This document shows positions 39,701 through 64,000 of a stretch of 64,000 bases of DNA, piece after piece. Source of the DNA: Gordius sp. MW1 (lineage: Eukaryota; Nematomorpha; Gordioida; Gordea; Gordiidae); contig OZ038526.1 of the NCBI GenBank assembly GCA_964036665.1, positions 15,128,001 to 15,192,000 of the forward strand, read 5' to 3'. The first letter of the stretch is position 1. Every line of letters starts with the position of its first letter. The notes beneath the pieces were generated by a model. It saw nothing but the letters and a program-made list of their open reading frames with translations. It was not told the DNA's origin and did no database searches. The translations under genes were made by a program, and so were the position numbers.

Positions 39701-42700
39701 GACAACGTTTTATTGTTGCGATTAGTTTGTTGTATCGCAACGTGAGTGCTTAATTTTTGAAAACTGCTCTATGCGATCATGATTTCAAAGTAATAGTTTT
39801 TAGATTCTGATAAATTTTTACTTGGTATCATAGAAACCACGTCTGAAAACGACAACTTTCATCGAATGAATACGGTTCAAAGAAAAATATTTTTTTCGAT
39901 TCTATGTGAAAGAGCATAAAAAAATATATAAAAGTAAGCCAATTTGAGAATCCTATTATCCTCGATTGACTTCCGAAAAGAGGTTTTAAGCTGCGAGAAC
40001 TATCATTTTGACAAAAGACAACGTTTTATTGTTGCGATTAGTTTGTTGTATCGCAACGTGAGTGCTTAATTTTTGAAAACTGCTCTATGCGATCATGATT
40101 TCAAAGTAATAGTTTTTAGATTCTGATAAATTTTTACTTGGGATCATAGAAACCACGTCTGAAAACGACAACTTTCATCGGATGAATACGGTTCAAAGAA
40201 AAATATGTGAAAGATTTTGAGGTTATAATATTTATTTTTTTCGATTCTATGTGAAAGAGCATGAAAAAATATATAAAAGTAAGCCAATTTGAGAATCCTA
40301 TTATCCTCGATTGACTTCCGAAAAGAGGTTTTAAGCTGCGAGAACTATCATTTTTACAAAAGACAACGTTTTATTGTTGCGATTAGTTTGTTGTATCGCA
40401 ACGTGAGTGCTTAATTTTTGAAAACTGCTCTATGCGATCATGATTTCAAAGTAATAGTTTTTAGATTCTGATAAATTTTTACTTGGGATCATAGAAACCA
40501 CGTCTGAAAACGACAACTTTCATCGGATGAATACGGTTCAAAGAAAAATATGTGAAAGATTTTGAGGTTATAATATTTATTTTTTTCGATTCTATGTGAA
40601 AGAGCATGAAAAAATATATAAAAGTAAGCCAATTTGAGAATGATATTATCCTCGATTGACTTCCGAAAAGAGGTTTTAAGCTGCGAGAACTATCATTTTT
40701 ACAAAAGACAACGTTTTATTGTTGCGATTAGTTTGTTGTATCGCAACGTGAGTGCTTAATTTTTGAAAACTGCTCTATGCGATCATGATTTCAAAGTAAT
40801 AGTTTTTAGATTCTGATAAATTTTTACTTGGGATCATAGAAACCACGTCTGAAACGACAACTTTCATCGGATGAATACGGTTCAAAGAAAAATACGTGAA
40901 AAATTTTGAGATAAAAATATTTATTTTTTTCGATTCTATGTGAAAGAGCATGAAAAAATATATAAAAGTAAGCCAATTTGAGAATCCTATTATCCTCGAT
41001 TGACTTCCGAAAAGAGGTTTTAAGCTGCGAGAACTATCATTTTTACAAAAGACAACGTTTTATTGTTGCGATTAGTTTGTTGTATCGCAACGTGAGTGCT
41101 TAATTTTTGAAAACTGCTCTATGCGATCATGATTTCAAAGTAATAGTTTTTAGATTCTGATAAATTTTTACTTGGGATCATAGAAACCACGTCTGAAAAC
41201 GACAACTTTCATCGGATGAATACGGTTCAAAGAAAAATATGTGAAAGATTTTGAGGTTATAATATTTATTTTTTTCGATTCTATGTGAAAGAGCATGAAA
41301 AAATATATAAAAGTAAGCCAATTTGAGAATCCTATTATCCTCGATTGATTTCCGAAAAGAGGTTTTAAGCGGCGAGAACTATCATTTTGACAAAAGACAA
41401 CGTTTTATTGTTGCGATTAGTTTGTTGTATCGCAACGTGAGTGCTTAATTTTTGAAAACTGCTCTATGCGATCATGATTTCAAAGTAATAGTTTTTAGAT
41501 TCTGATAAATTTTTACTTGGGATCATAGAAACCACGTCTGAAAACGACAACTTTCATCGGATGAATACGGTTCAAAGAAAAATATGTGAAAGATTTTGAG
41601 GTTATAATATTTATTTTTTTCGATTCTATGTGAAAGAGCATGAAAAAATATATAAAAGTAAGCCAATTTGAGAATCCTATTATCCTCGATTGACTTCCGA
41701 AAAGAGGTTTTAAGCTGCGAGAACTATCATTTTTACAAAAGACAACGTTTTATTGTTGCGATTAGTTTGTTGTATCGCAACGTGAGTGCTTAATTTTTGA
41801 AAACTGCTCTATGCGATCATGATTTCAAAGTAATAGTTTTTAGATTCTGATAAATTTTTACTTGGGATCATAGAAACCACGTCTGAAAACGACAACTTTC
41901 ATCGGATGAATACGGTTCAAAGAAAAATATGTGAAAGATTTTGAGGTTATAATATTTATTTTTTTCGATTCTATGTGAAAGAGCATGAAAAAATATATAA
42001 AAGTAAGCCAATTTGAGGAATGATATTATCCTCGATTGACTTCCGAAAAGAGGTTTTAAGCTGCGAGAACTATCATTTTTACAAAAGACAACGTTTTATT
42101 GTTGCGATTAGTTTGTTGTATCGCAACGTGAGTGCTTAATTTTTGAAAACTGCTCTATGCGATCATGATTTCAAAGTAATAGTTTTTAGATTCTGATAAA
42201 TTTTTACTTGGGATCATAGAAACCACGTCTGAAACGACAACTTTCATCGGATGAATACGGTTCAAAGAAAAATACGTGAAAAATTCTGAGATAAAAATAT
42301 TTATTTTTTTCGATTCTATGTGAAAGAGCATGAAAAAATATATAAAAGTAAGCCAATTTGAGAATCCTATTATCCTCGATTGACTTCCGAAAAGAGGTTT
42401 TAAGCTGCGAGAACTATCATTTTTACAAAAGACAACGTTTTATTGTTGCGATTAGTTTGTTGTATCGCAACGTGAGTGCTTAATTTTTGAAAACTGCTCT
42501 ATGCGATCATGATTTCAAAGTAATAGTTTCTAGATTCTTATAAATTTTTACTTGGGATCATAGAAACCACGTCTGAAAACGACAACTTTAATCGGATGAA
42601 TACGGTTCAAAGAAAAATATGTGAAAAATTTTGAGGTAAAAATATTTATTTTTTTCGATTCTATGTGAAAGAGCATGAAAAAATATATAAAAGTAAGCCA

Positions 42701-42885
42701 ATTTGAGAATCCTATTATCCTCGATTGACTTGCGAAAAAAGGTTTTAAGCTGCGAGAACTATCATTTTGACAAAAGACAACGTTTTATTGTTGCGATTAG
42801 TTTGTTGTATCGCAACGTGAGTGCTTAATTTTTGAAAACTGCTCTATGCGATCATGATTTCAAAGTAATAGTTTCTAGATTCTTA

Positions 42886-45268
42886 TAAATTTTTACTTGG
42901 GATCATAGAAACCACGTCTGAAAACGACAACTTTAATCGGATGAATACGGTTCAAAGAAAAATATGTGAAAAATTTTGAGGTAAAAATATTTATTTTTTT
43001 CGATTCTATGTGAAAGAGCATGAAAAAATATATAAAAGTAAGCCAATTTGAGAATCCTATTATCCTCGATTGACTTCCGAAAAGAGGTTTTAAGCTGCGA
43101 GAACTATCATTTTGACAAAAGACAATGTTTTATTGTTGCGATTAGTTTGTTGTATCGCAACGTGAGTGCTTAATTTTTGAAAACTGCTCTATGCGATCAT
43201 GATTTCAAAGTAATAGTTTTTAGATTCTGATAAATTTTTACTTGGAATCATAGAAACCACGTCTGAAAACGACAACTTTCATCGGATGAATACGGTTCAA
43301 AGAAAAATATGTGAAAAATTTTGAGGTAAAAATATTTATTTTTTTCAATTCTATGTGAAAGAGCATGAAAAAATATATAAAAGTAAGCCAATTTGAGAAT
43401 CCTATTATCCTCGATTGACTTCCGAAAAGAGGTTTTAAGCTGCGAGAACTATCATTTTGACAAAAGACAACGTTTTATTGTTGCGATTAGTTTGTTGTAT
43501 CGCAACGTGAGTGCTTAATTTGAAAACTGCTCTATGCGATCATGATTTCAAAGTAATAGTTTTTAGATTCTGATAAATTTTTACTTGGGATCATAGAAAC
43601 CACGTCTGAAAACGACAACTTTCATCGGATGAATACGGTTCAAAGAAAAATATGTGAAAAATTTTGAGGTAAAAATATTTATTTTTTTCGATTCTATGTG
43701 AAAGAGCATGAAAAAATATATAAAAGTAAGCCAATTTGAGAATCCTATTATCCTCGATTGACTTCCGAAAAGAGGTTTTAAGCTGCGAGAACTATCATTT
43801 TGACAAAAGACAACGTTTTATTGTTGCGATTAGTTTGTTGTATCGCAACGTGAGTGCTTAATTTTTGAAAACTGCTCTATGCGATCATGATTTCAAAGTA
43901 ATAGTTTTTAGATTCTGATAAATTTTTACTTGGTATCATAGAAACCACGTCTGAAAACGACAACTTTCATCGAATGAATACGGTTCAAAGAAAAATATTT
44001 TTTTCGATTCTATGTGAAAGAGCATAAAAAAATATATAAAAGTAAGCCAATTTGAGAATCCTATTATCCTCGATTGACTTCCGAAAAGAGGTTTTAAGCT
44101 GCGAGAACTATCATTTTGACAAAAGACAACGTTTTATTGTTGCGATTAGTTTGTTGTATCGCAACGTGAGTGCTTAATTTTTGAAAACTGCTCTATGCGA
44201 TCATGATTTCAAAGTAATAGTTTTTAGATTCTGATAAATTTTTACTTGGGATCATAGAAACCACGTCTGAAAACGACAACTTTCATCGGATGAATACCGT
44301 TCAAAGAAAAATATGTGAAAGATTTTGAGGTTATAATATTTATTTTTTTCGATTCTATGTGAAAGAGCATGAAAAAATATATAAAAGTAAGCCAATTTGA
44401 GAATCCTATTATCCTCGATTGACTTCCGAAAAGAGGTTTTAAGCTGCGAGAACTATCATTTTTACAAAAGACAACGTTTTATTGTTGCGATTAGTTTGTT
44501 GTATCGCAACGTGAGTGCTTAATTTTTGAAAACTGCTCTATGCGATCATGATTTCAAAGTAATAGTTTTTAGATTCTGATAAATTTTTACTTGGGATCAT
44601 AGAAACCACGTCTGAAAACGACAACTTTCATCGGATGAATACGGTTCAAAGAAAAATATGTGAAAGATTTTGAGGTTATAATATTTATTTTTTTCGATTC
44701 TATGTGAAAGAGCATGAAAAAATATATAAAAGTAAGCCAATTTGAGAATGATATTATCCTCGATTGACTTCCGAAAAGAGGTTTTAAGCTGCGAGAACTA
44801 TCATTTTTACAAAAGACAACGTTTTATTGTTGCGATTAGTTTGTTGTATCGCAACGTGAGTGCTTAATTTTTGAAAACTGCTCTATGCGATCATGATTTC
44901 AAAGTAATAGTTTTTAGATTCTGATAAATTTTTACTTGGGATCATAGAAACCACGTCTGAAACGACAACTTTCATCGGATGAATACGGTTCAAAGAAAAA
45001 TACGTGAAAAATTTTGAGATAAAAATATTTATTTTTTTCGATTCTATGTGAAAGAGCATGAAAAAATATATAAAAGTAAGCCAATTTGAGAATCCTATTA
45101 TCCTCGATTGACTTCCGAAAAGAGGTTTTAAGCTGCGAGAACTATCATTTTTACAAAAGACAACGTTTTATTGTTGCGATTAGTTTGTTGTATCGCAACG
45201 TGAGTGCTTAATTTTTGAAAACTGCTCTATGCGATCATGATTTCAAAGTAATAGTTTTTAGATTCTGA
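42886..45268 (+). repeat. 2,383-bp seven-monomer unit, copy 1
   Basis: Monomer lengths are 345, 345, 343, 345, 316, 345 and 344... summed from the measured starts 42886, 43231, 43574, 43919, 44235, 44580 and 44925 to 45268 they total 2,383 bp. Directly abuts copy 2. A private change is GAATACCGTTC near 44293. The first monomer has TTGGGATCAT where copy 2 has TTGGAATCAT. Confidence 0.9.
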
Positions 45269-47651
45269 TAAATTTTTACTTGGAATCATAGAAACCACGT
45301 CTGAAAACGACAACTTTAATCGGATGAATACGGTTCAAAGAAAAATATGTGAAAAATTTTGAGGTAAAAATATTTATTTTTTTCGATTCTATGTGAAAGA
45401 GCATGAAAAAATATATAAAAGTAAGCCAATTTGAGAATCCTATTATCCTCGATTGACTTCCGAAAAGAGGTTTTAAGCTGCGAGAACTATCATTTTGACA
45501 AAAGACAATGTTTTATTGTTGCGATTAGTTTGTTGTATCGCAACGTGAGTGCTTAATTTTTGAAAACTGCTCTATGCGATCATGATTTCAAAGTAATAGT
45601 TTTTAGATTCTGATAAATTTTTACTTGGAATCATAGAAACCACGTCTGAAAACGACAACTTTCATCGGATGAATACGGTTCAAAGAAAAATATGTGAAAA
45701 ATTTTGAGGTAAAAATATTTATTTTTTTCAATTCTATGTGAAAGAGCATGAAAAAATATATAAAAGTAAGCCAATTTGAGAATCCTATTATCCTCGATTG
45801 ACTTCCGAAAAGAGGTTTTAAGCTGCGAGAACTATCATTTTGACAAAAGACAACGTTTTATTGTTGCGATTAGTTTGTTGTATCGCAACGTGAGTGCTTA
45901 ATTTGAAAACTGCTCTATGCGATCATGATTTCAAAGTAATAGTTTTTAGATTCTGATAAATTTTTACTTGGGATCATAGAAACCACGTCTGAAAACGACA
46001 ACTTTCATCGGATGAATACGGTTCAAAGAAAAATATGTGAAAAATTTTGAGGTAAAAATATTTATTTTTTTCGATTCTATGTGAAAGAGCATGAAAAAAT
46101 ATATAAAAGTAAGCCAATTTGAGAATCCTATTATCCTCGATTGACTTCCGAAAAGAGGTTTTAAGCTGCGAGAACTATCATTTTGACAAAAGACAACGTT
46201 TTATTGTTGCGATTAGTTTGTTGTATCGCAACGTGAGTGCTTAATTTTTGAAAACTGCTCTATGCGATCATGATTTCAAAGTAATAGTTTTTAGATTCTG
46301 ATAAATTTTTACTTGGTATCATAGAAACCACGTCTGAAAACGACAACTTTCATCGAATGAATACGGTTCAAAGAAAAATATTTTTTTCGATTCTATGTGA
46401 AAGAGCATAAAAAAATATATAAAAGTAAGCCAATTTGAGAATCCTATTATCCTCGATTGACTTCCGAAAAGAGGTTTTAAGCTGCGAGAACTATCATTTT
46501 GACAAAAGACAACGTTTTATTGTTGCGATTAGTTTGTTGTATCACAACGTGAGTGCTTAATTTTTGAAAACTGCTCTATGCGATCATGATTTCAAAGTAA
46601 TAGTTTTTAGATTCTGATAAATTTTTACTTGGGATCATAGAAACCACGTCTGAAAACGACAACTTTCATCGGATGAATACGGTTCAAAGAAAAATATGTG
46701 AAAGATTTTGAGGTTATAATATTTATTTTTTTCGATTCTATGTGAAAGAGCATGAAAAAATATATAAAAGTAAGCCAATTTGAGAATCCTATTATCCTCG
46801 ATTGACTTCCGAAAAGAGGTTTTAAGCTGCGAGAACTATCATTTTTACAAAAGACAACGTTTTATTGTTGCGATTAGTTTGTTGTATCGCAACGTGAGTG
46901 CTTAATTTTTGAAAACTGCTCTATGCGATCATGATTTCAAAGTAATAGTTTTTAGATTCTGATAAATTTTTACTTGGGATCATAGAAACCACGTCTGAAA
47001 ACGACAACTTTCATCGGATGAATACGGTTCAAAGAAAAATATGTGAAAGATTTTGAGGTTATAATATTTATTTTTTTCGATTCTATGTGAAAGAGCATGA
47101 AAAAATATATAAAAGTAAGCCAATTTGAGAATGATATTATCCTCGATTGACTTCCGAAAAGAGGTTTTAAGCTGCGAGAACTATCATTTTTACAAAAGAC
47201 AACGTTTTATTGTTGCAATTAGTTTGTTGTATCGCAACGTGAGTGCTTAATTTTTGAAAACTGCTCTATGCGATCATGATTTCAAAGTAATAGTTTTTAG
47301 ATTCTGATAAATTTTTACTTGGGATCATAGAAACCACGTCTGAAACGACAACTTTCATCGGATGAATACGGTTCAAAGAAAAATACGTGAAAAATTTTGA
47401 GATAAAAATATTTATTTTTTTCGATTCTATGTGAAAGAGCATGAAAAAATATATAAAAGTAAGCCAATTTGAGAATCCTATTATCCTCGATTGACTTCCG
47501 AAAAGAGGTTTTAAGCTGCGAGAACTATCATTTTTACAAAAGACAACGTTTTATTGTTGCGATTAGTTTGTTGTATCGCAACGTGAGTGCTTAATTTTTG
47601 AAAACTGCTCTATGCGATCATGATTTCAAAGTAATAGTTTTTAGATTCTGA
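45269..47651 (+). repeat. 2,383-bp seven-monomer unit, copy 2
   Basis: Same order and same total length as 42886-45268. Private changes include TATCACAACG near 46540 and GTTGCAATTAG near 47213, both of which fall in the arms of the conserved inverted repeat and weaken it. The unit is followed directly by Region VI, whose first monomer is a relative of this unit's first monomer. Confidence 0.9.
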
Positions 47652-50600
47652 TAAATTTTTACTTGGAATCATAGAAACCACGTCTGAAAACGACAACTTT
47701 AATCGGATGAATACGGTTCAAAGAAAAATATGTGAAAAATTTTGAGATAAAAATATTTATTTTTTTCGATTCTATGTGAAAGAGCATGAAAAAATATATA
47801 AAAGTAAGCCAATTTGAGAATCCTATTATCCTCGATTGACTTCCGAAAAGAGGTTTTAAGCTGCGAGAACTATCATTTTTACAAAAGACAACGTTTTATT
47901 GCTGCGATTAGTTTGTTGTATAGCAACGTGAGTGCTTAATTTTTGAAAACTGCTCTATGAGATCATGATTTCAAAGTAATAGTTTTTAGATTCTGATAAA
48001 TTTTTACTTGGGATCATAGAAACCACGTCTGAAAACGACAACTTTCATCTGATGAATACGGTTCAAAGAAAAATATGTGAAAAATTTTGAGGTAAAAATA
48101 TTTATTTTTTTCGATTCTATGTGAAAGAGCATGAAAAAATATATAAAAGTAAGCCAATTTGAGAATCCTATTATCCTCGATTGACTTCCGAAAAGAGGTT
48201 TTAAGCTGCGAGAACTATCATTTTGACAAAAGACAACGTTTTATTGTTGCGATTAGTTTGTTGTATCGCAACGTGAGTGCTTAATTTTTGAAAACTGCTC
48301 TATGCGATCATGATTTCAAAGTAATAGTTTTTAGATTCTGATAAATTTTTACTTGGGATCATAGAAACCACGTCTGAAAACGACAACTTTCATCGGATGA
48401 ATACGGTTCAAAGAAAAATATGTGAAAGATTTTGAGGTTATAATATTTATATTTTTCGATTCTATGTGAAAGAGCATGAAAAAATATATAAAAGTAAGCC
48501 AATTTGAGAATCCTATTATCCTCGATTGACTTCCGAAAAGAGGTTTTAAGCTGCGAGAACTATCATTTTTACAAAAGACAACGTTTTATTGCTGCGATTA
48601 GTTTGTTGTATAGCAACGTGAGTGCTTAATTTTTGAAAACTGCTCTATGCGATCATGATTTCAAAGTAATAGTTTTTAGATTCTGATTAATTTTTACTTG
48701 GGACATAGAAATCACGTCTGAAAACGACAACTTTCATCTGATGAATACGGTTCAAAGAAAAATATGTGAAAGATTTTGAGGTTAAAATCTTATTTTTTTC
48801 GATTCTATGTGAAAGAGCATGAAAAAATATATAAAAGTAAGCCAATTTGAGAATCCTATTATCCTCGATTGACTTCCGAAAAAAGGTTTTAAGCTGCGAG
48901 AACTATCATTTTGACAAAAGATAACGTTTTATTGTTGCGATTAGTTTGTTGTATCGTAACGTGAGTGCTTAATTTTTGAAAACTGCTCTATGCGATCATG
49001 ATTTCAAAGTAATAGTTTTTAGATTCTGATAAATTTTTACTTGGTATCATAGAAACCACGTCTGAAAACGACAACTTTCATCGGATGAATACGGTTCAAA
49101 GAAAAATATTTTTTTCGATTCTATGTGAAAGAGCATGAAAAAATATATAAAAGTAAGCCAATTTGAGAATCCTATTATCCTCGATTGACTTCCGAAAAGA
49201 GGTTTTAAGCTGCGAGAACTATCATTTTTACAAAAGACAACGTTTTATTGCTGCGATTAGTTTGTTGTATAGCAACGTAAGTGCTTAATTTTTGAAAACT
49301 GCTCTATGCGATCATGATTTCAAAGTAATAGTTTTTAGATTCTGATAAATTTTTACTTGGGATCATAGAAACCACGTCTGAAAACGACAACTTTCATCGG
49401 ATGAATACGGTTCAAAGAAAAATATGTGAAAAATTTTGAGATAAAAATATTTATTTTTTTCGATACTATGTGAAAGAGCATGAAAAAATATATAAAAGTA
49501 AGCCAATTTGAGAATCCTATTATCCTCGATTGACTTCCGAAAAGAGGTTTTAAGCTGCGAGAACTATCATTTTTACAAAAGACAACGTTTTATTGTTGCG
49601 ATTAGTTTGTTGTATCGCAACGTGAGTGCTTAATTTTTGAAAACTGCTCTATGCGATCATGATTTCAAAGTAATAGTTTTTGGATTCTTATAAATTTTTA
49701 CTTGGGATCATAGAAACCACGTCTGAAAACGACAACTTTCATCGGATGAATACGGTTCAAAGAAAAATATTTTTTTCGATTCTATGTGAAAGAGCATGAA
49801 AAAATATATAAAAGTAAGTAATTTGAGAATCCTATTATCCTCGATTGACTTCCGAAAAGAGTTTTAAGCTGCGAGAACTATCATTTTGACAAAAGACAAC
49901 GTTTTATTGTTGCGATTAGTTTGTTGTATCGCAACGTGAGTGCTTAATTTTTGAAAACTGCTCTATGCGATCATGATTTCAAAGTAATAGTTTTTAGATT
50001 CTGATAAATTTTTACTTGGGATCATAGAAACCACGTCTGAAACGACAACTTTCATCGGATGAATACGGTTCAAAGAAAAATATGTGAAAAATTTTGACAT
50101 AAAAATATTTATTTTTTTCGTTACTATGTGAAAAAGCATGAAAAAATATATAAAAGTAAGCCAATTTGAGAATCCTATTATCCTCGATTGACTTCCGAAA
50201 AGAGGTTTTAAGCTGCGAGAACTATCATTTTTACAAAAGACAACGTTTTATTGTTGCGATTAGTTTGTTGTATCGCAACGTGAGTGCTTAATTTTTGAAA
50301 ACTGCTCTATGCGATCATGATTTCAAAGTAATAGTTTTTAGATTCTGATAAATTTTTACTTGGGATCATAGAAACCACGTCTGAAAACGACAACTTTCAT
50401 CGGATGAATACGGTTCAAAGAAAAATATGTGAAAAATTTTGAGGTAAAAATATTTATTTTTTTCGATTCTATGTGAAAGAGCATGAAAAAATATATAAAA
50501 GTAAGCCAATTTGAGAATCCTATTATCCTCGATTGACTTCCGAAAAGAGGTTTTAAGCTGCGAGAACTATCATTTTGACAAAAGACAACGTTTTATTGTT

Positions 50601-51382
50601 GCGATTAGTTTGTTGTATCGCAACGTGAGTGCTTAATTTTTGAAAACTGCTCTATGCGATCATGATTTCAAAGTATTAGTTTTTAGATTCTGATAAATTT
50701 TTACTTGGGATCATAGAAACCACGTCTGAAAACGACAACTTTCATCGGATGAATACGGTTCAAAGAAAAATATGTGAAAGATTTTGAGGTTATAATATTT
50801 ATTTTTTTCGATTCTATGTGAAAGAGCATGAAAAAATATATAAAAGTAAGCCAATTTGAGAATGATATTATCCTCGATTGACTTCCGAAAAGAGGTTTTA
50901 AGCTGCGAGAACTATCATTTTTACAAAAGACAACGTTTTATTGTTGCGATTAGTTTGTTGTATCGCAACGTGAGTGCTTAATTTTTGAAAACTGCTCTAT
51001 GCGATCATGATTTCAAAGTAATAGTTTTTAGATTCTGATAAATTTTTACTTGGGATCATAGAAACCACGTCTGAAACGACAACTTTCATCGGATGAATAC
51101 GGTTCAAAGAAAAATACGTGAAAAATTTTGAGATAAAAATATTTATTTTTTTCGATTCTATGTGAAAGAGCATGAAAAAATATATAAAAGTAAGCCAATT
51201 TGAGAATCCTATTATCCTCGATTGACTTCCGAAAAGAGGTTTTAAGCTGCGAGAACTATCATTTTTACAAAAGACAACGTTTTATTGTTGCGATTAGTTT
51301 GTTGTATCGCAACGTGAGTGCTTAATTTTTGAAAACTGCTCTATGCGATCATGATTTCAAAGTAATAGTTTTTAGATTCTGA
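47652..51382 (+). repeat. Region VI unit 1, eleven monomers (a b c d e f' g h i j k), 3,731 bp
   Basis: Starts: 47652, 47997, 48342, 48687, 49030, 49346, 49691, 50005, 50349, 50694 and 51039. It holds both the h and the i-j-k modules, which later units carry one at a time, and it lacks f0. It is therefore the most inclusive form, possibly close to an ancestral order. Private changes are TATGAGATCATG near 47957 and CTGATTAATTTT near 48684. Confidence 0.88.
49691..50004 (+). repeat. 29-bp deletion monomer, AAGTAAGTAATTTG lineage (first of five)
   Basis: It has the same 29-bp deletion as the TTGGTATCAT lineage but TTGGGATCAT, AAGTAAGTAATTTG and GAAAAGAGTTTT, giving 314 bp. Copies start at 49691, 53766, 56117, 59848 and 62200. 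Because the deletion junction is the same, gene conversion or a shared ancestor is more likely than an independent deletion. Confidence 0.92.
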
Positions 51383-54300
51383 TAAATTTTTACTTGGAAT
51401 CATAGAAACCACGTCTGAAAACGACAACTTTAATCGGATGAATACGGTTCAAAGAAAAATATGTGAAAAATTTTGAGATAAAAATATTTATTTTTTTCGA
51501 TTCTATGTGAAAGAGCATGAAAAAATATATAAAAGTAAGCCAATTTGAGAATCCTATTATCCTCGATTGACTTCCGAAAAGAGGTTTTAAGCTGCGAGAA
51601 CTATCATTTTTACAAAAGACAACGTTTTATTGCTGCGATTAGTTTGTTGTATAGCAACGTGAGTGCTTAATTTTTGAAAACTGCTCTATGCGATCATGAT
51701 TTCAAAGTAATAGTTTTTAGATTCTGATAAATTTTTACTTGGGATCATAGAAACCACGTCTGAAAACGACAACTTTCATCTGATGAATACGGTTCAAAGA
51801 AAAATATGTGAAAAATTTTGAGGTAAAAATATTTATTTTTTTCGATTCTATGTGAAAGAGCATGAAAAAATATATAAAAGTAAGCCAATTTGAGAATCCT
51901 ATTATCCTCGATTGACTTCCGAAAAGAGGTTTTAAGCTGCGAGAACTATCATTTTGACAAAAGACAACGTTTTATTGTTGCGATTAGTTTGTTGTATCGC
52001 AACGTGAGTGCTTAATTTTTGAAAACTGCTCTATGCGATCATGATTTCAAAGTAATAGTTTTTAGATTCTGATAAATTTTTACTTGGGATCATAGAAACC
52101 ACGTCTGAAAACGACAACTTTCATCGGATGAATACGGTTCAAAGAAAAATATGTGAAAGATTTTGAGATTATAATATTTATATTTTTCGATTCTATGTGA
52201 AAGAGCATGAAAAAATATATAAAAGTAAGCCAATTTGAGAATCCTATTATCCTCGATTGACTTCCGAAAAGAGGTTTTAAGCTGCGAGAACTATCATTTT
52301 TACAAAAGACAACGTTTTATTGCTGCGATTAGTTTGTTGTATAGCAACGTGAGTGCTTAATTTTTGAAAACTGCTCTATGCGATCATGATTTCAAAGTAA
52401 TAGTTTTTAGATTCTGATAAATTTTTACTTGGGACATAGAAATCACGTCTGAAAACGACAACTTTCATCTGATGAATACGGTTCAAAGAAAAATATGTGA
52501 AAGATTTTGAGGTTAAAATCTTATTTTTTTTCGATTCTATGTGAAAGAGCATGAAAAAATATATAAAAGTAAGCCAATTTGAGAATCCTATTATCCTCGA
52601 TTGACTTCCGAAAAAAGGTTTTAAGCTGCGAGAACTATCATTTTGACAAAAGATAACGTTTTATTGTTGCGATTCGTTTGTTGTATCGTAACGTGAGTGC
52701 TTAATTTTTGAAAACTGCTCTATGCGATCATGATCTCAAAGTAATAGTTTTTAGATTCTGATAAATTTTTACTTGGTATCATAGAAACCACGTCTGAAAA
52801 CGACAACTTTCATCGGATGAATACGGTTCAAAGAAAAATATTTTTTTCGATTCTATGTGAAAGAGCATGAAAAAATATATAAAAGTAAGCCAATTTGAGA
52901 ATCCTATTATCCTCGATTGACTTCCGAAAAGAGGTTTTAAGCTGCGAGAACTATCATTTTTACAAAAGACAACGTTTTATTGCTGCGATTAGTTTGTTGT
53001 ATAGCAACGTAAGTGCTTAATTTTTGAAAACTGCTCTATGCGATCATGATTTCAAAGTAATAGTTTTTAGATTCTGATAAATTTTTACTTGGGATCATAG
53101 AAACCACGTCTGAAAACGACAGCTTTCATCTGATGAATACGGTTCAAAGAAAAATATGTGAAAGATTTTGAGGTTATAATATTTATTTTTTTCGATTCTA
53201 TGTGAAAGAGCATGAAAAAATATATAAAAGTAAGCCAATTTGAGAATCCTATTATCCTCGATTGACTTCCGAAAAGAGGTTTTAAGCTGCGAGAACTATC
53301 ATTTTTACAAAAGACAACGTATTATTGCTGCGATTAGTTTGTTGTATAGCAACGTGAGTGCTTAATTTTTGAAAACTGCTCTATGCGATCATGATTTCAA
53401 AGTAATAGTTTTTGATTCTGATAAATTTTTATTTGGGATCATAGAAACCACGTCTGAAACGACAACTTTCATCGGATGAATACGGTTCAAAGAAAAATAT
53501 GTGAAAAATTTTGAGATAAAAATATTTCTTTTTTTCGATACTATGTGAAAGAGCATGAAAAAATATATAAAAGTAAGCCAATTTGAGAATCCTATTATCC
53601 TCGATTGACTTCCGAAAAGAGGTTTTAAGCTGCGAGAACTATCATTTTTACAAAAGACAACGTTTTATTGTTGCGATTAGTTTGTTGTATCGCAACGTGA
53701 GTGCTTAATTTTTGAAAACTGCTCTATGCGATCATGATTTCAAAGTAATAGTTTTTGGATTCTTATAAATTTTTACTTGGGATCATAGAAACCACGTCTG
53801 AAAACGACAACTTTCATCGGATGAATACGGTTCAAAGAAAAATATTTTTTTCGATTCTATGTGAAAGAGCATGAAAAAATATATAAAAGTAAGTAATTTG
53901 AGAATCCTATTATCCTCGATTGACTTCCGAAAAGAGTTTTAAGCTGCGAGAACTATCATTTTGACAAAAGACAACGTTTTATTGTTGCGATTAGTTTGTT
54001 GTATCGCAACGTGAGTGCTTAATTTTTGAAAACTGCTCTATGCGATCATGATTTCAAAGTAATAGTTTTTAGATTCTGATAAATTTTTACTTGGGATCAT
54101 AGAAACCACGTCTGAAACGACAACTTTCATCGGATGAATACGGTTCAAAGAAAAATATGTGAAAAATTTTGACATAAAAATATTTATTTTTTTCGTTACT
54201 ATGTGAAAAAGCATGAAAAAATATATAAAAGTAAGCCAATTTGAGAATCCTATTATCCTCGATTGACTTCCGAAAAGAGGTTTTAAGCTGCGAGAACTAT

Positions 54301-56430
54301 CATTTTTACAAAAGACAACGTTTTATTGTTGCGATTAGTTTGTTGTATCGCAACGTGAGTGCTTAATTTTTGAAAACTGCTCTATGCGATCATGATTTCA
54401 AAGTAATAGTTTTTAGATTCTGATAAATTTTTACTTGGAATCATAGAAACCACGTCTGAAAACGACAACTTTAATCGGATGAATACGGTTCAAAGAAAAA
54501 TATGTGAAAAATTTTGAGATAAAAATATTTATTTTTTTCGATTCTATGTGAAAGAGCATGAAAAAATATATAAAAGTAAGCCAATTTGAGAATCCTATTA
54601 TCCTCGATTGACTTCCGAAAAGAGGTTTTAAGCTGCGAGAACTATCATTTTTACAAAAGACAACGTTTTATTGCTGCGATTAGTTTGTTGTATAGCAACG
54701 TGAGTGCTTAATTTTTGAAAACTGCTCTATGCGATCATGATTTCAAAGTAATAGTTTTTAGATTCTGATAAATTTTTACTTGGGACATAGAAATCACGTC
54801 TGAAAACGACAACTTTCATCTGATGAATACGGTTCAAAGAAAAATATGTGAAAGATTTTGAGGTTAAAATCTTATTTTTTTTCGATTCTATGTGAAAGAG
54901 CATGAAAAAATATATAAAAGTAAGCCAATTTGAGAATCCTATTATCCTCGATTGACTTCCGAAAAAAGGTTTTAAGCTGCGAGAACTATCATTTTGACAA
55001 AAGATAACGTTTTATTGTTGCGATTAGTTTGTTGTATCGTAACGTGAGTGCTTAATTTTTGAAAACTGCTCTATGCGATCATGATTTCAAAGTAATAGTT
55101 TTTAGATTCTGATAAATTTTTACTTGGTATCATAGAAACCACGTCTGAAAACGACAACTTTCATCGGATGAATACGGTTCAAAGAAAAATATTTTTTTCG
55201 ATTCTATGTGAAAGAGCATGAAAAAATATATAAAAGTAAGCCAATTTGAGAATCCTATTATCCTCGATTGACTTCCGAAAAGAGGTTTTAAGCTGCGAGA
55301 ACTATCATTTTTACAAAAGACAACGTTTTATTGCTGCGATTAGTTTGTTGTATAGCAACGTAAGTGCTTAATTTTTGAAAACTGCTCTATGCGATCATGA
55401 TTTCAAAGTAATAGTTTTTAGATTCTGATAAATTTTTACTTGGGATCATAGAAACCACGTCTGAAAACGACAGCTTTCATCTGATGAATACGGTTCAAAG
55501 AAAAATATGTGAAAGATTTTGAGGTTATAATATTTATTTTTTTCGATTCTATGTGAAAGAGCATGAAAAAATATATAAAAGTAAGCCAATTTGAGAATCC
55601 TATTATCCTCGATTGACTTCCGAAAAGAGGTTTTAAGCTGCGAGAACTATCATTTTTACAAAAGACAACGTATTATTGCTGCGATTAGTTTGTTGTATAG
55701 CAACGTGAGTGCTTAATTTTTGAAAACTGCTCTATGCGATCATGATTTCAAAGTAATAGTTTTTGATTCTGATAAATTTTTATTTGGGATCATAGAAACC
55801 ACGTCTGAAACGACAACTTTCATCGGATGAATACGGTTCAAAGAAAAATATGTGAAAAATTTTGAGATAAAAATATTTCTTTTTTTCGATACTATGTGAA
55901 AGAGCATGAAAAAATATATAAAAGTAAGCCAATTTGAGAATCCTATTATCCTCGATTGACTTCCGAAAAGAGGTTTTAAGCTGCGAGAACTATCATTTTT
56001 ACAAAAGACAACGTTTTATTGTTGCGATTAGTTTGTTGTATCGCAACGTGAGTGCTTAATTTTTGAAAACTGCTCTATGCGATCATGATTTCAAAGTAAT
56101 AGTTTTTGGATTCTTATAAATTTTTACTTGGGATCATAGAAACCACGTCTGAAAACGACAACTTTCATCGGATGAATACGGTTCAAAGAAAAATATTTTT
56201 TTCGATTCTATGTGAAAGAGCATGAAAAAATATATAAAAGTAAGTAATTTGAGAATCCTATTATCCTCGATTGACTTCCGAAAAGAGTTTTAAGCTGCGA
56301 GAACTATCATTTTGACAAAAGACAACGTTTTATTGTTGCGATTAGTTTGTTGTATCGCAACGTGAGTGCTTAATTTTTGAAAACTGCTCTATGCGATCAT
56401 GATTTCAAAGTAATAGTTTTTAGATTCTGA
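50349..56430 (+). repeat. 18-monomer super-unit, copy 1 (6,082 bp)
   Basis: Order: i j k, a b c d e f0 f g h, a d e f0 f g. It abuts copy 2 (56431-62513) with no intervening base, so the two form a true tandem duplication. This phase is the one that gives the longest match: upstream of 50349 comes h, while upstream of 56431 comes g. Confidence 0.9.
51383..54423 (+). repeat. Region VI unit 2, nine monomers (a b c d e f0 f g h), 3,041 bp
   Basis: Starts: 51383, 51728, 52073, 52418, 52762, 53078, 53422, 53766 and 54080. Unit 4 (57465-60505) has the same order and the same length, and shares the rare pair GATTCGTTTG and ATGATCTC in its d monomer. Confidence 0.92.
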
Positions 56431-57464
56431 TAAATTTTTACTTGGGATCATAGAAACCACGTCTGAAAACGACAACTTTCATCGGATGAATACGGTTCAA
56501 AGAAAAATATGTGAAAAATTTTGAGGTAAAAATATTTATTTTTTTCGATTCTATGTGAAAGAGCATGAAAAAATATATAAAAGTAAGCCAATTTGAGAAT
56601 CCTATTATCCTCGATTGACTTCCGAAAAGAGGTTTTAAGCTGCGAGAACTATCATTTTGACAAAAGACAACGTTTTATTGTTGCGATTAGTTTGTTGTAT
56701 CGCAACGTGAGTGCTTAATTTTTGAAAACTGCTCTATGCGATCATGATTTCAAAGTATTAGTTTTTAGATTCTGATAAATTTTTACTTGGGATCATAGAA
56801 ACCACGTCTGAAAACGACACCTTTCATCGGATGAATACGGTTCAAAGAAAAATATGTGAAAGATTTTGAGGTTATAATATTTATTTTTTTCGATTCTATG
56901 TGAAAGAGCATGAAAAAATATATAAAAGTAAGCCAATTTGAGAATGATATTATCCTCGATTGACTTCCGAAAAGAGGTTTTAAGCTGCGAGAACTATCAT
57001 TTTTACAAAAGACAACGTTTTATTGTTGCGATTAGTTTGTTGTATCGCAACATGAGTGCTTAATTTTTGAAAACTGCTCTATGCGATCATGATTTCAAAG
57101 TAATAGTTTTTAGATTCTGATAAATTTTTACTTGGGATCATAGAAACCACGTCTGAAACGACAACTTTCATCGGATGAATACGGTTCAAAGAAAAATACG
57201 TGAAAAATTTTGAGATAAAAATATTTATTTTTTTCGATTCTATGTGAAAGAGCATGAAAAAATATATAAAAGTAAGCCAATTTGAGAATCCTATTATCCT
57301 CGATTGACTTCCGAAAAGAGGTTTTAAGCTGCGAGAACTATCATTTTTACAAAAGACAACGTTTTATTGTTGCGATTAGTTTGTTGTATCGCAACGTGAG
57401 TGCTTAATTTTTGAAAACTGCTCTATGCGATCATGATTTCAAAGTAATAGTTTTTAGATTCTGA
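54424..57464 (+). repeat. Region VI unit 3, nine monomers (a d e f0 f g i j k), 3,041 bp
   Basis: Starts: 54424, 54769, 55113, 55429, 55773, 56117, 56431, 56776 and 57121. It has the same length as unit 2 but lacks b, c and h and has i, j and k instead. Each set of three totals 1,034 bp, which explains the equal length. Its d monomer lacks the GATTCG and GATCTC changes of units 2 and 4. Confidence 0.92.
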
Positions 57465-60400
57465 TAAATTTTTACTTGGAATCATAGAAACCACGTCTGA
57501 AAACGACAACTTTAATCGGATGAATACGGTTCAAAGAAAAATATGTGAAAAATTTTGAGATAAAAATATTTTTTTTTTTCGATTCTATGTGAAAGAGCAT
57601 GAAAAAATATATAAAAGTAAGCCAATTTGAGAATCCTATTATCCTCGATTGACTTCCGAAAAGAGGTTTTAAGCTGCGAGAACTATCATTTTTACAAAAG
57701 ACAACGTTTTATTGCTGCGATTAGTTTGTTGTATAGCAACGTGAGTGCTTAATTTTTGAAAACTGCTCTATGCGATCATGATTTCAAAGTAATAGTTTTT
57801 AGATTCTGATAAATTTTTACTTGGGATCATAGAAACCACGTCTGAAAACGACAACTTTCATCTGATGAATACGGTTCAAAGAAAAATATGTGAAAAATTT
57901 TGAGGTAAAAATATTTATTTTTTTCGATTCTATGTGAAAGAGCATGAAAAAATATATAAAAGTAAGCCAATTTGAGAATCCTATTATCCTCGATTGACTT
58001 CCGAAAAGAGGTTTTAAGCTGCGAGAACTATCATTTTGACAAAAGACAACGTTTTATTGTTGCGATTAGTTTGTTGTATCGCAACGTGAGTGCTTAATTT
58101 TTGAAAACTGCTCTATGCGATCATGATTTCAAAGTAATAGTTTTTAGATTCTGATAAATTTTTACTTGGGATCATAGAAACCACGTCTGAAAACGACAAC
58201 TTTCATCGGATGAATACGGTTCAAAGAAAAATATGTGAAAGATTTTGAGATTATAATATTTATATTTTTCGATTCTATGTGAAAGAGCATGAAAAAATAT
58301 ATAAAAGTAAGCCAATTTGAGAATCCTATTATCCTCGATTGACTTCCGAAAAGAGGTTTTAAGCTGCGAGAACTATCATTTTTACAAAAGACAACGTTTT
58401 ATTGCTGCGATTAGTTTGTTGTATAGCAACGTGAGTGCTTAATTTTTGAAAACTGCTCTATGCGATCATGATTTCAAAGTAATAGTTTTTAGATTCTGAT
58501 AAATTTTTACTTGGGACATAGAAATCACGTCTGAAAACGACAACTTTCATCTGATGAATACGGTTCAAAGAAAAATATGTGAAAGATTTTGAGGTTAAAA
58601 TCTTATTTTTTTTCGATTCTATGTGAAAGAGCATGAAAAAATATATAAAAGTAAGCCAATTTGAGAATCCTATTATCCTCGATTGACTTCCGAAAAAAGG
58701 TTTTAAGCTGCGAGAACTATCATTTTGACAAAAGATAACGTTTTATTGTTGCGATTCGTTTGTTGTATCGTAACGTGAGTGCTTAATTTTTGAAAACTGC
58801 TCTATGCGATCATGATCTCAAAGTAATAGTTTTTAGATTCTGATAAATTTTTACTTGGTATCATAGAAACCACGTCTGAAAACGACAACTTTCATCGGAT
58901 GAATACGGTTCAAAGAAAAATATTTTTTTCGATTCTATGTGAAAGAGCATGAAAAAATATATAAAAGTAAGCCAATTTGAGAATCCTATTATCCTCGATT
59001 GACTTCCGAAAAGAGGTTTTAAGCTGCGAGAACTATCATTTTTACAAAAGACAACGTTTTATTGCTGCGATTAGTTTGTTGTATAGCAACGTAAGTGCTT
59101 AATTTTTGAAAACTGCTCTATGCGATCATGATTTCAAAGTAATAGTTTTTAGATTCTGATAAATTTTTACTTGGGATCATAGAAACCACGTCTGAAAACG
59201 ACAGCTTTCATCTGATGAATACGGTTCAAAGAAAAATATGTGAAAGATTTTGAGGTTATAATATTTATTTTTTTCGATTCTATGTGAAAGAGCATGAAAA
59301 AATATATAAAAGTAAGCCAATTTGAGAATCCTATTATCCTCGATTGACTTCCGAAAAGAGGTTTTAAGCTGCGAGAACTATCATTTTTACAAAAGACAAC
59401 GTATTATTGCTGCGATTAGTTTGTTGTATAGCAACGTGAGTGCTTAATTTTTGAAAACTGCTCTATGCGATCATGATTTCAAAGTAATAGTTTTTGATTC
59501 TGATAAATTTTTATTTGGGATCATAGAAACCACGTCTGAAACGACAACTTTCATCGGATGAATACGGTTCAAAGAAAAATATGTGAAAAATTTTGAGATA
59601 AAAATATTTCTTTTTTTCGATACTATGTGAAAGAGCATGAAAAAATATATAAAAGTAAGCCAATTTGAGAATCCTATTATCCTCGATTGACTTCCGAAAA
59701 GAGGTTTTAAGCTGCGAGAACTATCATTTTTACAAAAGACAACGTTTTATTGTTGCGATTAGTTTGTTGTATCGCAACGTGAGTGCTTAATTTTTGAAAA
59801 CTGCTCTATGCGATCATGATTTCAAAGTAATAGTTTTTGGATTCTTATAAATTTTTACTTGGGATCATAGAAACCACGTCTGAAAACGACAACTTTCATC
59901 GGATGAATACGGTTCAAAGAAAAATATTTTTTTCGATTCTATGTGAAAGAGCATGAAAAAATATATAAAAGTAAGTAATTTGAGAATCCTATTATCCTCG
60001 ATTGACTTCCGAAAAGAGTTTTAAGCTGCGAGAACTATCATTTTGACAAAAGACAACGTTTTATTGTTGCGATTAGTTTGTTGTATCGCAACGTGAGTGC
60101 TTAATTTTTGAAAACTGCTCTATGCGATCATGATTTCAAAGTAATAGTTTTTAGATTCTGATAAATTTTTACTTGGGATCATAGAAACCACGTCTGAAAC
60201 GACAACTTTCATCGGATGAATACGGTTCAAAGAAAAATATGTGAAAAATTTTGACATAAAAATATTTATTTTTTTCGTTACTATGTGAAAAAGCATGAAA
60301 AAATATATAAAAGTAAGCCAATTTGAGAATCCTATTATCCTCGATTGACTTCCGAAAAGAGGTTTTAAGCTGCGAGAACTATCATTTTTACAAAAGACAA

Positions 60401-62513
60401 CGTTTTATTGTTGCGATTAGTTTGTTGTATCGCAACGTGAGAGCTTAATTTTTGAAAACTGCTCTATGCGATCATGATTTCAAAGTAATAGTTTTTAGAT
60501 TCTGATAAATTTTTACTTGGAATCATAGAAACCACGTCTGAAAACGACAACTTTAATCGGATGAATACGGTTCAAAGAAAAATATGTGAAAAATTTTGAG
60601 ATAAAAATATTTATTTTTTTCGATTCTATGTGAAAGAGCATGAAAAAATATATAAAAGTAAGCCAATTTGAGAATCCTATTATCCTCGATTGACTTCCGA
60701 AAAGAGGTTTTAAGCTGCGAGAACTATCATTTTTACAAAAGACAACGTTTTATTGCTGCGATTAGTTTGTTGTATAGCAACGTGAGTGCTTAATTTTTGA
60801 AAACTGCTCTATGCGATCATGATTTCAAAGTAATAGTTTTTAGATTCTGATAAATTTTTACTTGGGACATAGAAATCACGTCTGAAAACGACAACTTTCA
60901 TCTGATGAATACGGTTCAAAGAAAAATATGTGAAAGATTTTGAGGTTAAAATCTTATTTTTTTTCGATTCTATGTGAAAGAGCATGAAAAAATATATAAA
61001 AGTAAGCCAATTTGAGAATCCTATTATCCTCGATTGACTTCCGAAAAAAGGTTTTAAGCTGCGAGAACTATCATTTTGACAAAAGATAACGTTTTATTGT
61101 TGCGATTAGTTTGTTGTATCGTAACGTGAGTGCTTAATTTTTGAAAACTGCTCTATGCGATCATGATTTCAAAGTAATAGTTTTTAGATTCTGATAAATT
61201 TTTACTTGGTATCATAGAAACCACGTCTGAAAACGACAACTTTCATCGGATGAATACGGTTCAAAGAAAAATATTTTTTTCGATTCTATGTGAAAGAGCA
61301 TGAAAAAATATATAAAAGTAAGCCAATTTGAGAATCCTATTATCCTCGATTGACTTCCGAAAAGAGGTTTTAAGCTGCGAGAACTATCATTTTTACAAAA
61401 GACAACGTTTTATTGCTGCGATTAGTTTGTTGTATAGCAACGTAAGTGCTTAATTTTTGAAAACTGCTCTATGCGATCATGATTTCAAAGTAATAGTTTT
61501 TAGATTCTGATAAATTTTTACTTGGGATCATAGAAACCACGTCTGAAAACGACAGCTTTCATCTGATGAATACGGTTCAAAGAAAAATATGTGAAAGATT
61601 TTGAGGTTATAATATTTATTTTTTTCGATTCTATGTGAAAGAGCATGAAAAAATATATAAAAGTAAGCCAATTTGAGAATCCTATTATCCTCGATTGACT
61701 TCCGAAAAGAGGTTTTAAGCTGCGAGAACTATCATTTTTACAAAAGACAACGTATTATTGCTGCGATTAGTTTGTTGTATAGCAACGTGAGTGCTTAATT
61801 TTTGAAAACTGCTCTATGCGATCATGATTTCAAAGTAATAGTTTTTAGATTCTGATAAATTTTTATTTGGGATCATAGAAACCACGTCTGAAACGACAAC
61901 TTTCATCGGATGAATACGGTTCAAAGAAAAATATGTGAAAAATTTTGAGATAAAAATATTTATTTTTTTCGATACTATGTGAAAGAGCATGAAAAAATAT
62001 ATAAAAGTAAGCCAATTTGAGAATCCTATTATCCTCGATTGACTTCCGAAAAGAGGTTTTAAGCTGCGAGAACTATCATTTTTACAAAAGACAACGTTTT
62101 ATTGTTGCGATTAGTTTGTTGTATCGCAACGTGAGTGCTTAATTTTTGAAAACTGCTCTATGCGATCATGATTTCAAAGTAATAGTTTTTGGATTCTTAT
62201 AAATTTTTACTTGGGATCATAGAAACCACGTCTGAAAACGACAACTTTCATCGGATGAATACGGTTCAAAGAAAAATATTTTTTTCGATTCTATGTGAAA
62301 GAGCATGAAAAAATATATAAAAGTAAGTAATTTGAGAATCCTATTATCCTCGATTGACTTCCGAAAAGAGTTTTAAGCTGCGAGAACTATCATTTTGACA
62401 AAAGACAACGTTTTATTGTTGCGATTAGTTTGTTGTATCGCAACGTGAGTGCTTAATTTTTGAAAACTGCTCTATGCGATCATGATTTCAAAGTAATAGT
62501 TTTTAGATTCTGA
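56431..62513 (+). repeat. 18-monomer super-unit, copy 2 (6,083 bp)
   Basis: Same order as copy 1. Differences I noticed by eye: GACACCTTTC near 56817, CAACATGAG near 57049, the T run near 57570, GTGAGAGC near 60438, TTTTTAGATTCTG near 61841 and TATTTATTTTT near 61958. That is about six in 6 kb, so the duplication is recent or has been homogenised recently. An exact alignment was not possible here. Confidence 0.88.
57465..60505 (+). repeat. Region VI unit 4, nine monomers (a b c d e f0 f g h), 3,041 bp
   Basis: Starts: 57465, 57810, 58155, 58500, 58844, 59160, 59504, 59848 and 60162. Copy of unit 2 at an offset of 6,082 bp. Differences I noticed are an all-T run near 57570, where unit 2 has one A, and GTGAGAGC near 60438. 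Confidence 0.92.
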
Positions 62514-62857
62514 TAAATTTTTACTTAGGATCATAGAAACCACGTCTGAAACGACAACTTTCATCGGATGAATACGGTTCAAAGAAAAATATGTGAAAAA
62601 TTTTGACATAAAAATATTTATTTTTTTCGTTACTATGTGAAAAAGCATGAAAAAATATATAAAAGTAAGCCAATTTGAGAATCCTATTATCCTCGATTGA
62701 CTTCCGAAAAGAGGTTTTAAGCTGCGAGAACTATCATTTTTACAAAAGACAACGTTTTATTGTTGCGATTAGTTTGTTGTATCGCAACGTGAGTGCTTAA
62801 TTTTTGAAAACTGCTCTATGCGATCATGATTTCAAAGTAATAGTTTTTAGATTCTGA
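60506..62857 (+). repeat. Region VI unit 5, seven monomers (a d e f0 f g h), 2,352 bp
   Basis: Starts: 60506, 60851, 61195, 61511, 61856, 62200 and 62514. Its first six monomers match unit 3. The last is h, where unit 3 continues with i. It keeps TTTTTAGATTCTG at the end of f0 and TATTTATTTTT in f, where the earlier copies have TTTTTGATTCTG and TATTTCTTTTT. Confidence 0.9.
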
Positions 62858-64000
62858 TAAATTTTTACTTGGGATCATAGAAACCACGTCTGAAAACGAC
62901 AACTTTAATCGGATGAATACGGTTCAAAGAAAAATATGTAAAATATTTTGAGGTAAAAATATTTATTTTTTTCGATTCTATGTGAAAGAGCATGAAAAAA
63001 TATATAAAAGTAAGCCAATTTGAGAATCCTATTATCCTCGATTGACTTACGAAAAGAGGTTTTAAGCTGCGAGAACTATCATTTTGACAAAAGAAAACGT
63101 TTTATTGTTGCGATTAGTTTGTTGTATCGAAACGTGAGTGCTTAATTTTTGAAAACTGCTCTATGCGATCATGACTTCAAAGTAATAGTTTTTAGATTCT
63201 GATAAATTTTGACTTGGGATCATAGAAACCACGTCTGAAAACGACAACTTTCATCGGATGAATACGGTTCAAAGAAAAATATGTGAAAGATTTTGAGGTT
63301 AAAATATTTATTTTTTTCAATTCTATGTGAAAGAGCATGAAAAAATATATAAAAGTAAGCCAATTTGAGAATCCTATTATCCTCGATTGACTTCCGAAAA
63401 GAGGTTTTAAGCTGCGAGAACTATCATTTTTACAAAAGACAACGTTTTATTGTTGCGATTAGTTTGTTGTATCGCAACGTGAGTGCTTAATTTTTGAAAA
63501 CTGCTCTATGCGATCATGACTTCAAAGTAATAGTTTTTAGATTCTGATAAATTTTGACTTGGGATCATAGAAACCACGTCTGAAAACGACAACTTTCATC
63601 GGATGAATACGGTTCAAAGAAAAATATGTGAAAGATTTTGAGGTTAAAATATTTATTTTTTTCGATTCTATGTGAAAGAGCATGAAAAAATATATAAAAG
63701 TAAGCCAATTTGAGAATCCTATTATCCTCGATTGATTTCCGAAAAGAGGTTTTAAGCTGCGAGAACTATCATTTTTACAAAAGACAACGTTTTATTGTTG
63801 CGATTAGTTTGTTGTATCGCAACGTGAGTGCTTAATTTTTGAAAACTGCTCTATGCGATCATGATTTCAAAGTAATAGTTTTTAGATTCTGATAAATTTT
63901 TACTTGGGATCATAGAAACCACGTCTGAAAACGACAACTTTCATCGGATGAATACGGTTCAAAAGAAAAATATGTGAAAAATTTTGAGGTTAAAATATTT
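62858..64000 (+). repeat. Region VII: monomers outside the 18-monomer order
   Basis: Starts: 62858, 63203, 63548 and a 108-bp partial at 63893. The first is of the CGAAAC lineage seen at 25077, 28140 and 33962, with AAAGAAAACG, ATGACTTCAAAG and a private GACTTACGAAAAG. The next two share AAATTTTGACTTGGG, seen only here. The partial has one extra A in TTCAAAAGAAAAAT. This marks the right border of the Region VI order. No gene. Confidence 0.88.

What the first reader, a model, noticed from the sequence alone, without database searches (positions are those of the whole stretch)
50349..62513. Two directly abutting 18-monomer units of 6,082 and 6,083 bp
Twelve monomer kinds recur in the same 18-step order twice with no gap (i j k a b c d e f0 f g h a d e f0 f g). 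I noticed only about six differences between the copies. Multi-kilobase nested HORs are best known from primate alpha satellite; a unit this regular in a 345-bp AT-rich satellite, probably invertebrate, is worth documenting. The high similarity implies very recent amplification or an assembly duplication.
Basis: seen in the sequence. Interest (0 to 1): 0.72.

Follow-up and report, generated by a model that had tools for sequence, protein, structure and literature searches.

The report
Recent two-copy satellite DNA duplication
A six-kilobase block of eighteen satellite repeats sits twice in a row in a repeat-rich region of an invertebrate chromosome, a young example among many nested local duplications of the kind by which such arrays are thought to grow; it looks genuine but is of a familiar kind.

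Summary
Blocks 50349-56430 and 56431-62513 abut, keep the same 18-monomer order and differ by 5 substitutions and 1 indel (99.90%). In 500 monomer shuffles the longest ordered run is 5, against 18 here. It is a two-copy nested tandem duplication, not a many-copy higher-order-repeat array: an 11-mer plus a 7-mer. Inner copies differ by 0.1-0.2%, like the outer pair; an older 11-mer copy upstream differs by 0.3-0.4%. Another two-copy block follows. The six differences look derived in the second copy. The window lies in a 345-bp satellite sampled from 12.9 to 16.5 Mb of a 37.4-Mb contig, with orientation switches and a sister satellite. Near-identical multi-monomer duplications occur in 13 of 14 sampled 10-kb stretches. 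A 29-bp deletion marker occurs 24 times, all within about 305 kb of one arm, though other words are shared between arms and contigs. Likely mechanism: out-of-register recombination or break-induced copying between sister chromatids. Assembly artefact is less likely but untested, since no reads were available. New member of a known kind.

The parts
50349..56430 (+). Copy A of the 18-monomer unit (6,082 bp)
   Evidence: 99.90% identical to copy B; 5 substitutions and 1 indel; order confirmed
56431..62513 (+). Copy B of the 18-monomer unit (6,083 bp), directly abutting A
   Evidence: the six differences look derived in B
50349..54079 (+). 11-mer sub-unit of A (i j k a b c d e f0 f g, 3,731 bp)
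   Evidence: Lag 3,731 also links the unit to the older upstream copy
54080..56430 (+). 7-mer sub-unit of A (h a d e f0 f g, 2,351 bp); lacks b and c relative to the 11-mer
   Evidence: Monomers a, d, e, f0, f, g differ from those of the 11-mer by 2 substitutions in 2,007 bp
56431..60161 (+). 11-mer sub-unit of B
60162..62513 (+). 7-mer sub-unit of B; carries the indel and one further difference 115 bp away, both read as a possible conversion tract
46963..50693 (+). Older upstream copy of the 11-mer (j k a b c d e f g h i); its last monomer i is also the first of A
   Evidence: j-d part differs from A by 6 substitutions and 2 gaps in 2,067 bp; monomer assignment
50233..50361 (+). Junction homology: 129 bp identical to 56315-56443
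   Evidence: not unusually long for this satellite (18.7% of 20,000 random in-register points reach 129 bp)
42621..48049 (+). Neighbouring tandem duplication with lag 2,383 bp (7 monomers) that contains j and k monomers
   Evidence: 3,046-bp match at 99.4%; j and k at 0-1 edits
62277..64000 (+). Start of the next two-copy block to the right, lag 2,065 bp (6 monomers); its second copy lies beyond the window
   Evidence: 1,725-bp match at 99.5% to L038:342-2066
52760..53075 (+). Truncated 316-bp monomer e with a 29-bp deletion; 15 monomers in the window carry the deletion
   Evidence: Alignment; positions; all 24 genome hits of the deletion 36-mer lie on the + strand of contig C8

Best explanation
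The feature is the youngest of three measured layers in a cascade of local, in-register segmental duplications inside a multi-megabase satellite region, probably the pericentromere or centromere (inferred). Shown: an older 11-mer copy differs by 0.3-0.4%; the 7-mer derivative lacking two monomers differs from its 11-mer source by 0.1-0.2%; the whole 18-mer was then copied (0.1%), later than the 7-mer because both copies contain it; the last step left exactly two copies in the assembly. Inferred: the copying is homology-driven unequal exchange between sister chromatids, or break-induced copying after fork collapse, joining points 18 monomers apart in register. Inferred: the two adjacent differences in the 7-mer of B come from one short conversion tract; the other four are point mutations, or conversions where the same state is seen elsewhere. 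I looked for no coding role and infer none; the effect is array growth and turnover.
For: Two-copy structure with preserved order. In-register join within a monomer, 129 bp identical. Layered divergence: outer 6 differences in 6,082 bp; inner 2 in 2,007 bp in A, and for d-g alone 3 substitutions and 1 gap in 1,662 bp in B; upstream 6 substitutions and 2 gaps in 2,067 bp. Same process around it: 216 ungapped matches of at least 690 bp at about 99% inside the window; at least one of 690 bp or more at 99.4% in 13 of 14 sampled 10-kb stretches of this satellite on C8, with lag of 5 kb or more in at least 8 of 14 (top four per locus printed). The 29-bp deletion marker stays in one arm, 24 of 24 hits within about 305 kb, although the satellite has 33,859 exact 29-mer hits in the genome.
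Against: No reads, second individual or chromatin data, so neither the second copy nor a centromeric role is proven. The junction homology is not longer than random in-register points often give (P = 0.187). All six changes on B is mildly unexpected if both copies mutate equally (about 0.06-0.13 for five or four independent events, my arithmetic). Two of B's four substitution states also occur in other fetched loci (1 and 5 times). Strictly local exchange is not proven: a 401-bp stretch at the start of A is 100% identical to two places on the minus arm near 13.51 Mb, 1.2-1.5-kb stretches at 98.5-98.8% link the two arms in inverted orientation, and the two 31-mers of monomer d also occur singly on other contigs.
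Confidence: 0.8

Rival explanations
1. Assembly artefact: one true copy was duplicated, or two haplotype versions of one copy were laid end to end.
For: 0.1% is within the range of ordinary heterozygosity (general knowledge), and no reads could be examined. The six differences all look derived in B, as one altered or second-haplotype copy might show.
Against: No gap in the window. A and B have different outer flanks with an in-register join. Multi-monomer duplications with a range of identities occur through the sampled satellite, and inner copies within each unit show a similar 0.1-0.2%, which a single mis-join would not produce.
Confidence: 0.12
2. A true amplified higher-order repeat with many copies, of which the assembly shows only two, as in human alpha satellite.
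For: Order and identity fit a HOR unit.
Against: Two unit-specific 31-mers lie together at only two places in the assembly. The flanks differ on both sides, and the 3 kb fetched beyond the window shows a different 6-mer duplication. Further copies could exist only if the assembly collapsed them.
Confidence: 0.05
3. Excision of an 18-mer extrachromosomal circle, rolling-circle copying and reinsertion beside its source.
For: Would also give directly abutting copies with an in-register join. The review PMC8122249 lists this route for satellites (passage).
Against: No further copies of the unit with both markers anywhere in the assembly; the deletion marker stays within one arm. Sequence alone cannot separate it from unequal exchange if the circle reinserts beside its source.
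Confidence: 0.1

Closest known systems
Primate alpha-satellite higher-order repeats
   Same: Block of distinct monomers repeated in fixed order, copies (99.90%) far more alike than the monomers within (random pairs differ by 15.1 edits on average)
   Different: 345-bp period, not about 171; monomers a few percent apart rather than about 30% (PMC8122249 passage); two copies rather than an array; exact CENP-B box core (pattern recalled) 0 times on either strand of the window
Satellite higher-order repeats of the Drosophila ananassae subgroup (PMC11917152, passages)
   Same: Invertebrate, long stretches of complex satellite with monomers of 99-411 bp and higher-order structure, presumed pericentromeric
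   Different: Different organism (no TTAGG 30-mer, many TTAGGG); sequences not compared; their copy numbers per unit not checked
Tribolium macro-dyad satellite regions (PMC13081366, abstract and passages)
   Same: Megabase satellite regions with inverted orientation of arrays and two intermingled satellites
   Different: Here switches are inferred from 10-kb samples 100-600 kb apart, not from read-through of tens-of-kilobase dyads; the middle satellite is a 67%-identical relative; organism not a typical insect by telomere repeat
Orangutan cascading alpha-satellite HORs (PMC11276891, PMC12428378; search listing with start of abstract only)
   Same: Nested units in which a longer unit contains shorter derivatives, like 11-mer plus 7-mer giving the 18-mer
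   Different: Primate arrays; here two copies in an invertebrate

Membership tests
Satellite higher-order repeat (HOR), broad sense | Block of two or more different monomers repeated in the same order | tested here: met
   18 of 18 monomers in order, 0-2 edits each
Satellite higher-order repeat (HOR), broad sense | Unit copies more alike than monomers within a unit | tested here: met
   99.90% between units; the kinds within the unit differ by 2-42 edits; random monomer pairs differ by 15.1 edits on average
Amplified HOR array, strict sense | Many head-to-tail copies of the unit | tested here: not met
   Two copies only; unit-specific markers co-occur at two places in the assembly
Alpha satellite | About 171-bp monomer | tested here: not met
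   345-bp period; the two halves of a typical monomer share only matches of 10 bases or fewer. No direct comparison with alpha-satellite sequence was made
Alpha satellite | CENP-B box in part of the monomers | tested here: not met
   Core pattern (recalled) found 0 times exactly on either strand of the window; 3 and 19 times with up to 2 mismatches, without a chance control
Functional centromere DNA | Binds centromeric histone | not testable with these tools
   No chromatin data
Macro-dyad satellite region | Same satellite in inverted orientation on two sides of a centre | tested here: inconclusive
   Of 20 sampled loci, 12.0 Mb has none, 12.9-13.9 Mb is minus, 14.0-14.4 Mb is the 67% relative in mixed orientation, 14.5-15.5 Mb plus, 15.7-16.5 Mb minus again; switch points not read

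The most novel reading that the evidence does not exclude
The region is a megabase-scale inverted satellite domain (minus arm, sister-satellite centre, plus arm) in a non-arthropod invertebrate, in which turnover happens mainly by bursts of two-copy, multi-kilobase nested duplications within one arm. The 29-bp deletion would then be a barcode for the reach of exchange: about 305 kb, with no hit across the centre or on another contig. Identical or near-identical stretches of 0.4-1.5 kb shared between the arms mean that some exchange across the centre, or slow change of a common monomer form, must also be allowed for.
Probability: 0.3. Interest if true: 0.5.

Novelty: new member of a known kind. 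Interest (0 to 1): 0.28.

Why it matters
Satellite arrays are thought to grow by out-of-register copying. Here three layers (11-mer, 7-mer, 18-mer) and their relative ages can be read off one stretch, and a deletion marker suggests that much of the exchange is local. It adds higher-order satellite organisation in an organism with TTAGGG telomere-type repeats, probably not a typical insect. It documents a known process rather than a new one.

Tried and rejected
Many-copy HOR array: rejected, only two places in the assembly carry both unit markers together. The whole-unit DNA search could not be used for absence: it scored 11 of 6,109 candidates and did not list even the two known copies; the places it lists are 93-97% identical (apart from short or partial pieces). 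Ancient dimer of about 172 bp: no support, halves share only matches of 10 bases or fewer. CENP-B box: exact core 0 hits; 3 and 19 hits with up to 2 mismatches were not set against chance. Junction homology as proof of recombination: rejected, P = 0.187; the control took the best of 25 small offsets, which lengthens its runs. Naming the organism: a search for a 211.8-Mb genome listed two unrelated pepper papers. PDB search with COX1 gave no help. Six 20-mers of the monomer were found in no held paper. Literature searches were made; supplements and subscription papers were not searched, and I make no wider claim that this satellite is unpublished.

Full report
OBSERVATION. The window is 345-bp satellite throughout, without N, and is G000:C8:15128001-15192000 in a 211.8-Mb genome of 12 contigs. 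The two blocks align over their full length with 5 substitutions and one single-base indel. Cutting the window into 187 monomers gives 128 distinct ones. Lag-18 distances for the 18 monomers are 0 to 2 edits; they sum to 7 rather than 6, which I put down to a one-base shift of a cut point. In 500 shuffles of monomer order the longest run within 2 edits was 5 (mean 2.16), against 18 observed.

ANATOMY. The 18-mer is a compound of an 11-mer (3,731 bp) and a 7-mer (2,351 bp). The 7-mer repeats a, d, e, f0, f and g of the 11-mer without b and c. Inside A the shared monomers differ by 2 substitutions in 2,007 bp; inside B, monomers d to g differ by 3 substitutions and 1 gap in 1,662 bp (monomer a was not compared in B). 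This is close to the 6 differences between A and B over 6,082 bp, so inner and outer copying happened close together, the outer one last, because both copies hold the 7-mer. Directly upstream lies an older 11-mer, j k a b c d e f g h i (46963-50693); its j-d part differs from that of A by 6 substitutions and 2 gaps in 2,067 bp. Further left, 42621-48049 holds a duplication with lag 2,383 bp that contains j and k monomers. To the right, 62277-64000 is repeated in the following 3 kb with a lag of 2,065 bp at 99.5%. After B comes an h-like monomer (2 edits), then the pattern is lost.

JOIN AND POLARITY. Of 20,000 random in-register points, 18.7% lie in an identical run at least that long, so the length is unremarkable. 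For four of the six differences the A state is common in the window (22 to 133 occurrences of the surrounding 25-mer) and the B state occurs once or twice; in the other fetched loci the four B states occur 0, 1, 0 and 5 times. For the other two, 115 bp apart, the A state occurs three times in the window, while the B state is the generic form at one site (134 times) and a form seen twice at the other. I read B as the changed copy at all six, with these two as one short conversion tract; the sixth site is the least certain. With a recalled mutation rate of a few times 10^-9 per site per generation the pair would be of the order of 10^5 generations old; this is rough.

COPY NUMBER. One 31-mer from monomer d occurs 23 times in the assembly and another 13 times, but only at C8:15180660-15180750 and C8:15186742-15186832 do both occur together; these are A and B. 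The unit is therefore private and two-copy in this assembly. The DNA search with the whole unit scored only 11 of 6,109 candidates and did not list A or B themselves, so it proves no absence.

SURROUNDINGS. A 29-mer of the satellite occurs 33,859 times (12,785 forward, 21,074 reverse); at 345 bp each that is about 11.7 Mb, 5.5% of the genome (my arithmetic, a lower bound since only exact hits count). Related stretches were found on C2, C5 and C6 and C1, and a 31-mer also on C3 and C4. Twenty sampled 10-kb loci on C8 show no satellite at 12.0 Mb, minus orientation in 6 of 6 loci from 12.9 to 13.9 Mb, a 67%-identical satellite in 5 of 5 loci from 14.0 to 14.4 Mb in mixed orientation (its 353-bp period was read in L026), plus orientation in 5 of 5 from 14.5 to 15.5 Mb, and minus in 3 of 3 from 15.7 to 16.5 Mb. 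Three of the arm loci are not fully satellite (L022 and L031 75%, L029 90% covered). Of these 14 arm loci, 13 contain at least one internal repeat of 690 bp or more at 99.4%; L031 has none. At least 8 have lags of 5 kb or more (only the four best per locus were printed), and 3 (L019, L020, L032) have matches over 2.5 kb at such lags (other sequence in the loci was not masked). Of seven other satellite loci scanned in that call, L013 had none and six had 1 to 8. In the middle satellite L026 shows a 6,292-bp lag that fills its sample, L028 two matches at lags near 3.0 kb, and L024, L025 and L027 none. The 6-kb unit is thus the longest ordered run in the window, but one of a common kind.

LOCALITY OF EXCHANGE. 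The short monomers e and g share a 29-bp deletion. A 36-mer across it occurs 24 times in the genome: 15 in the window, 4 at 15.248-15.252 Mb and 5 at 15.456-15.461 Mb of C8, all on the plus strand. Allowing 3 mismatches adds none (for the window confirmed independently). e and g have meanwhile diverged by 9 edits, so the deletion is much older than the 18-mer duplication, yet stays within about 305 kb of one arm. Against strict confinement: a 401-bp stretch at the start of A is 100% identical to two places on the minus arm (C8, near 13.507 and 13.509 Mb), stretches of 1.2-1.5 kb at 98.5-98.8% link loci of the two arms in inverted orientation, and the two 31-mers of monomer d occur singly on other contigs. 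These may be common monomer forms or older exchange. I conclude that recent copying is mostly local, not that it is always so.

ORGANISM. COX1 from C12 (14,798 bp) translates under table 5. TTAGGG x5 has 24,188 overlapping hits, the first 44 bp from the start of C1, and TTAGG x6 has none. This points away from a typical insect. I suspected a bryozoan from memory; no call confirms it.

COMPARISON. [quoted passage not shown] PMC8122249, passages). They are described in beetles and other animals (PMC5615363) and form stretches of up to 2 Mb in the Drosophila ananassae subgroup (PMC11917152, passages). The inverted-arm layout resembles what PMC13081366 calls macro-dyad symmetry and says was documented only in Tribolium (abstract and passages), though here it is seen only in samples. 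The present unit meets the broad definition of a HOR and fails the strict one of a many-copy array.

VERDICT. Well ordered and recent; most likely a real two-copy nested duplication produced by ordinary satellite turnover. An assembly duplication remains possible (about 0.12) and can be settled only with reads.

Noticed in passing
G000 contig C8, 12.9-16.5 Mb (L018-L036): Satellite orientation goes minus / sister satellite / plus / minus over more than 3.5 Mb in sampled loci, a layout like the macro-dyads reported for Tribolium; switch points were not read.
   Followed up: partly
G000 contig C8, 14.0-14.41 Mb (L024-L028): A satellite 67% identical to the 345-bp one lies between the two arms; in L026 it has a 353-bp period with 123-bp sub-repeats and a 6,292-bp higher-order lag over all the sample can show.
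   Followed up: partly
G000 contig C1, about 11.6509-11.6608 Mb: Positions of a satellite 29-mer repeat with a lag of 5,820 bp (17 monomers), suggesting another multi-kilobase two-copy block; letters not read.
   Followed up: no
G000 contig C2, 11.2398-11.4277 Mb: A marker occurs as a pair 7,518 bp apart and the same pair recurs 180,318 bp away, suggesting a duplication of about 180 kb.
   Followed up: no
G000 contig C4, 0.356-0.380 and 1.458-1.487 Mb: COX1 fragments in the nuclear genome lie in mirrored order on opposite strands, suggesting a large inverted duplication; fragments also occur on C1, C3, C5 and C8, one on C8 being as long as the match on C12.
   Followed up: no
window 27478-62512: Fifteen monomers carry one 29-bp deletion, with 3 bp of microhomology by my reading of the printed letters; none with this deletion lies left of 27.4 kb in the window.
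   Followed up: yes
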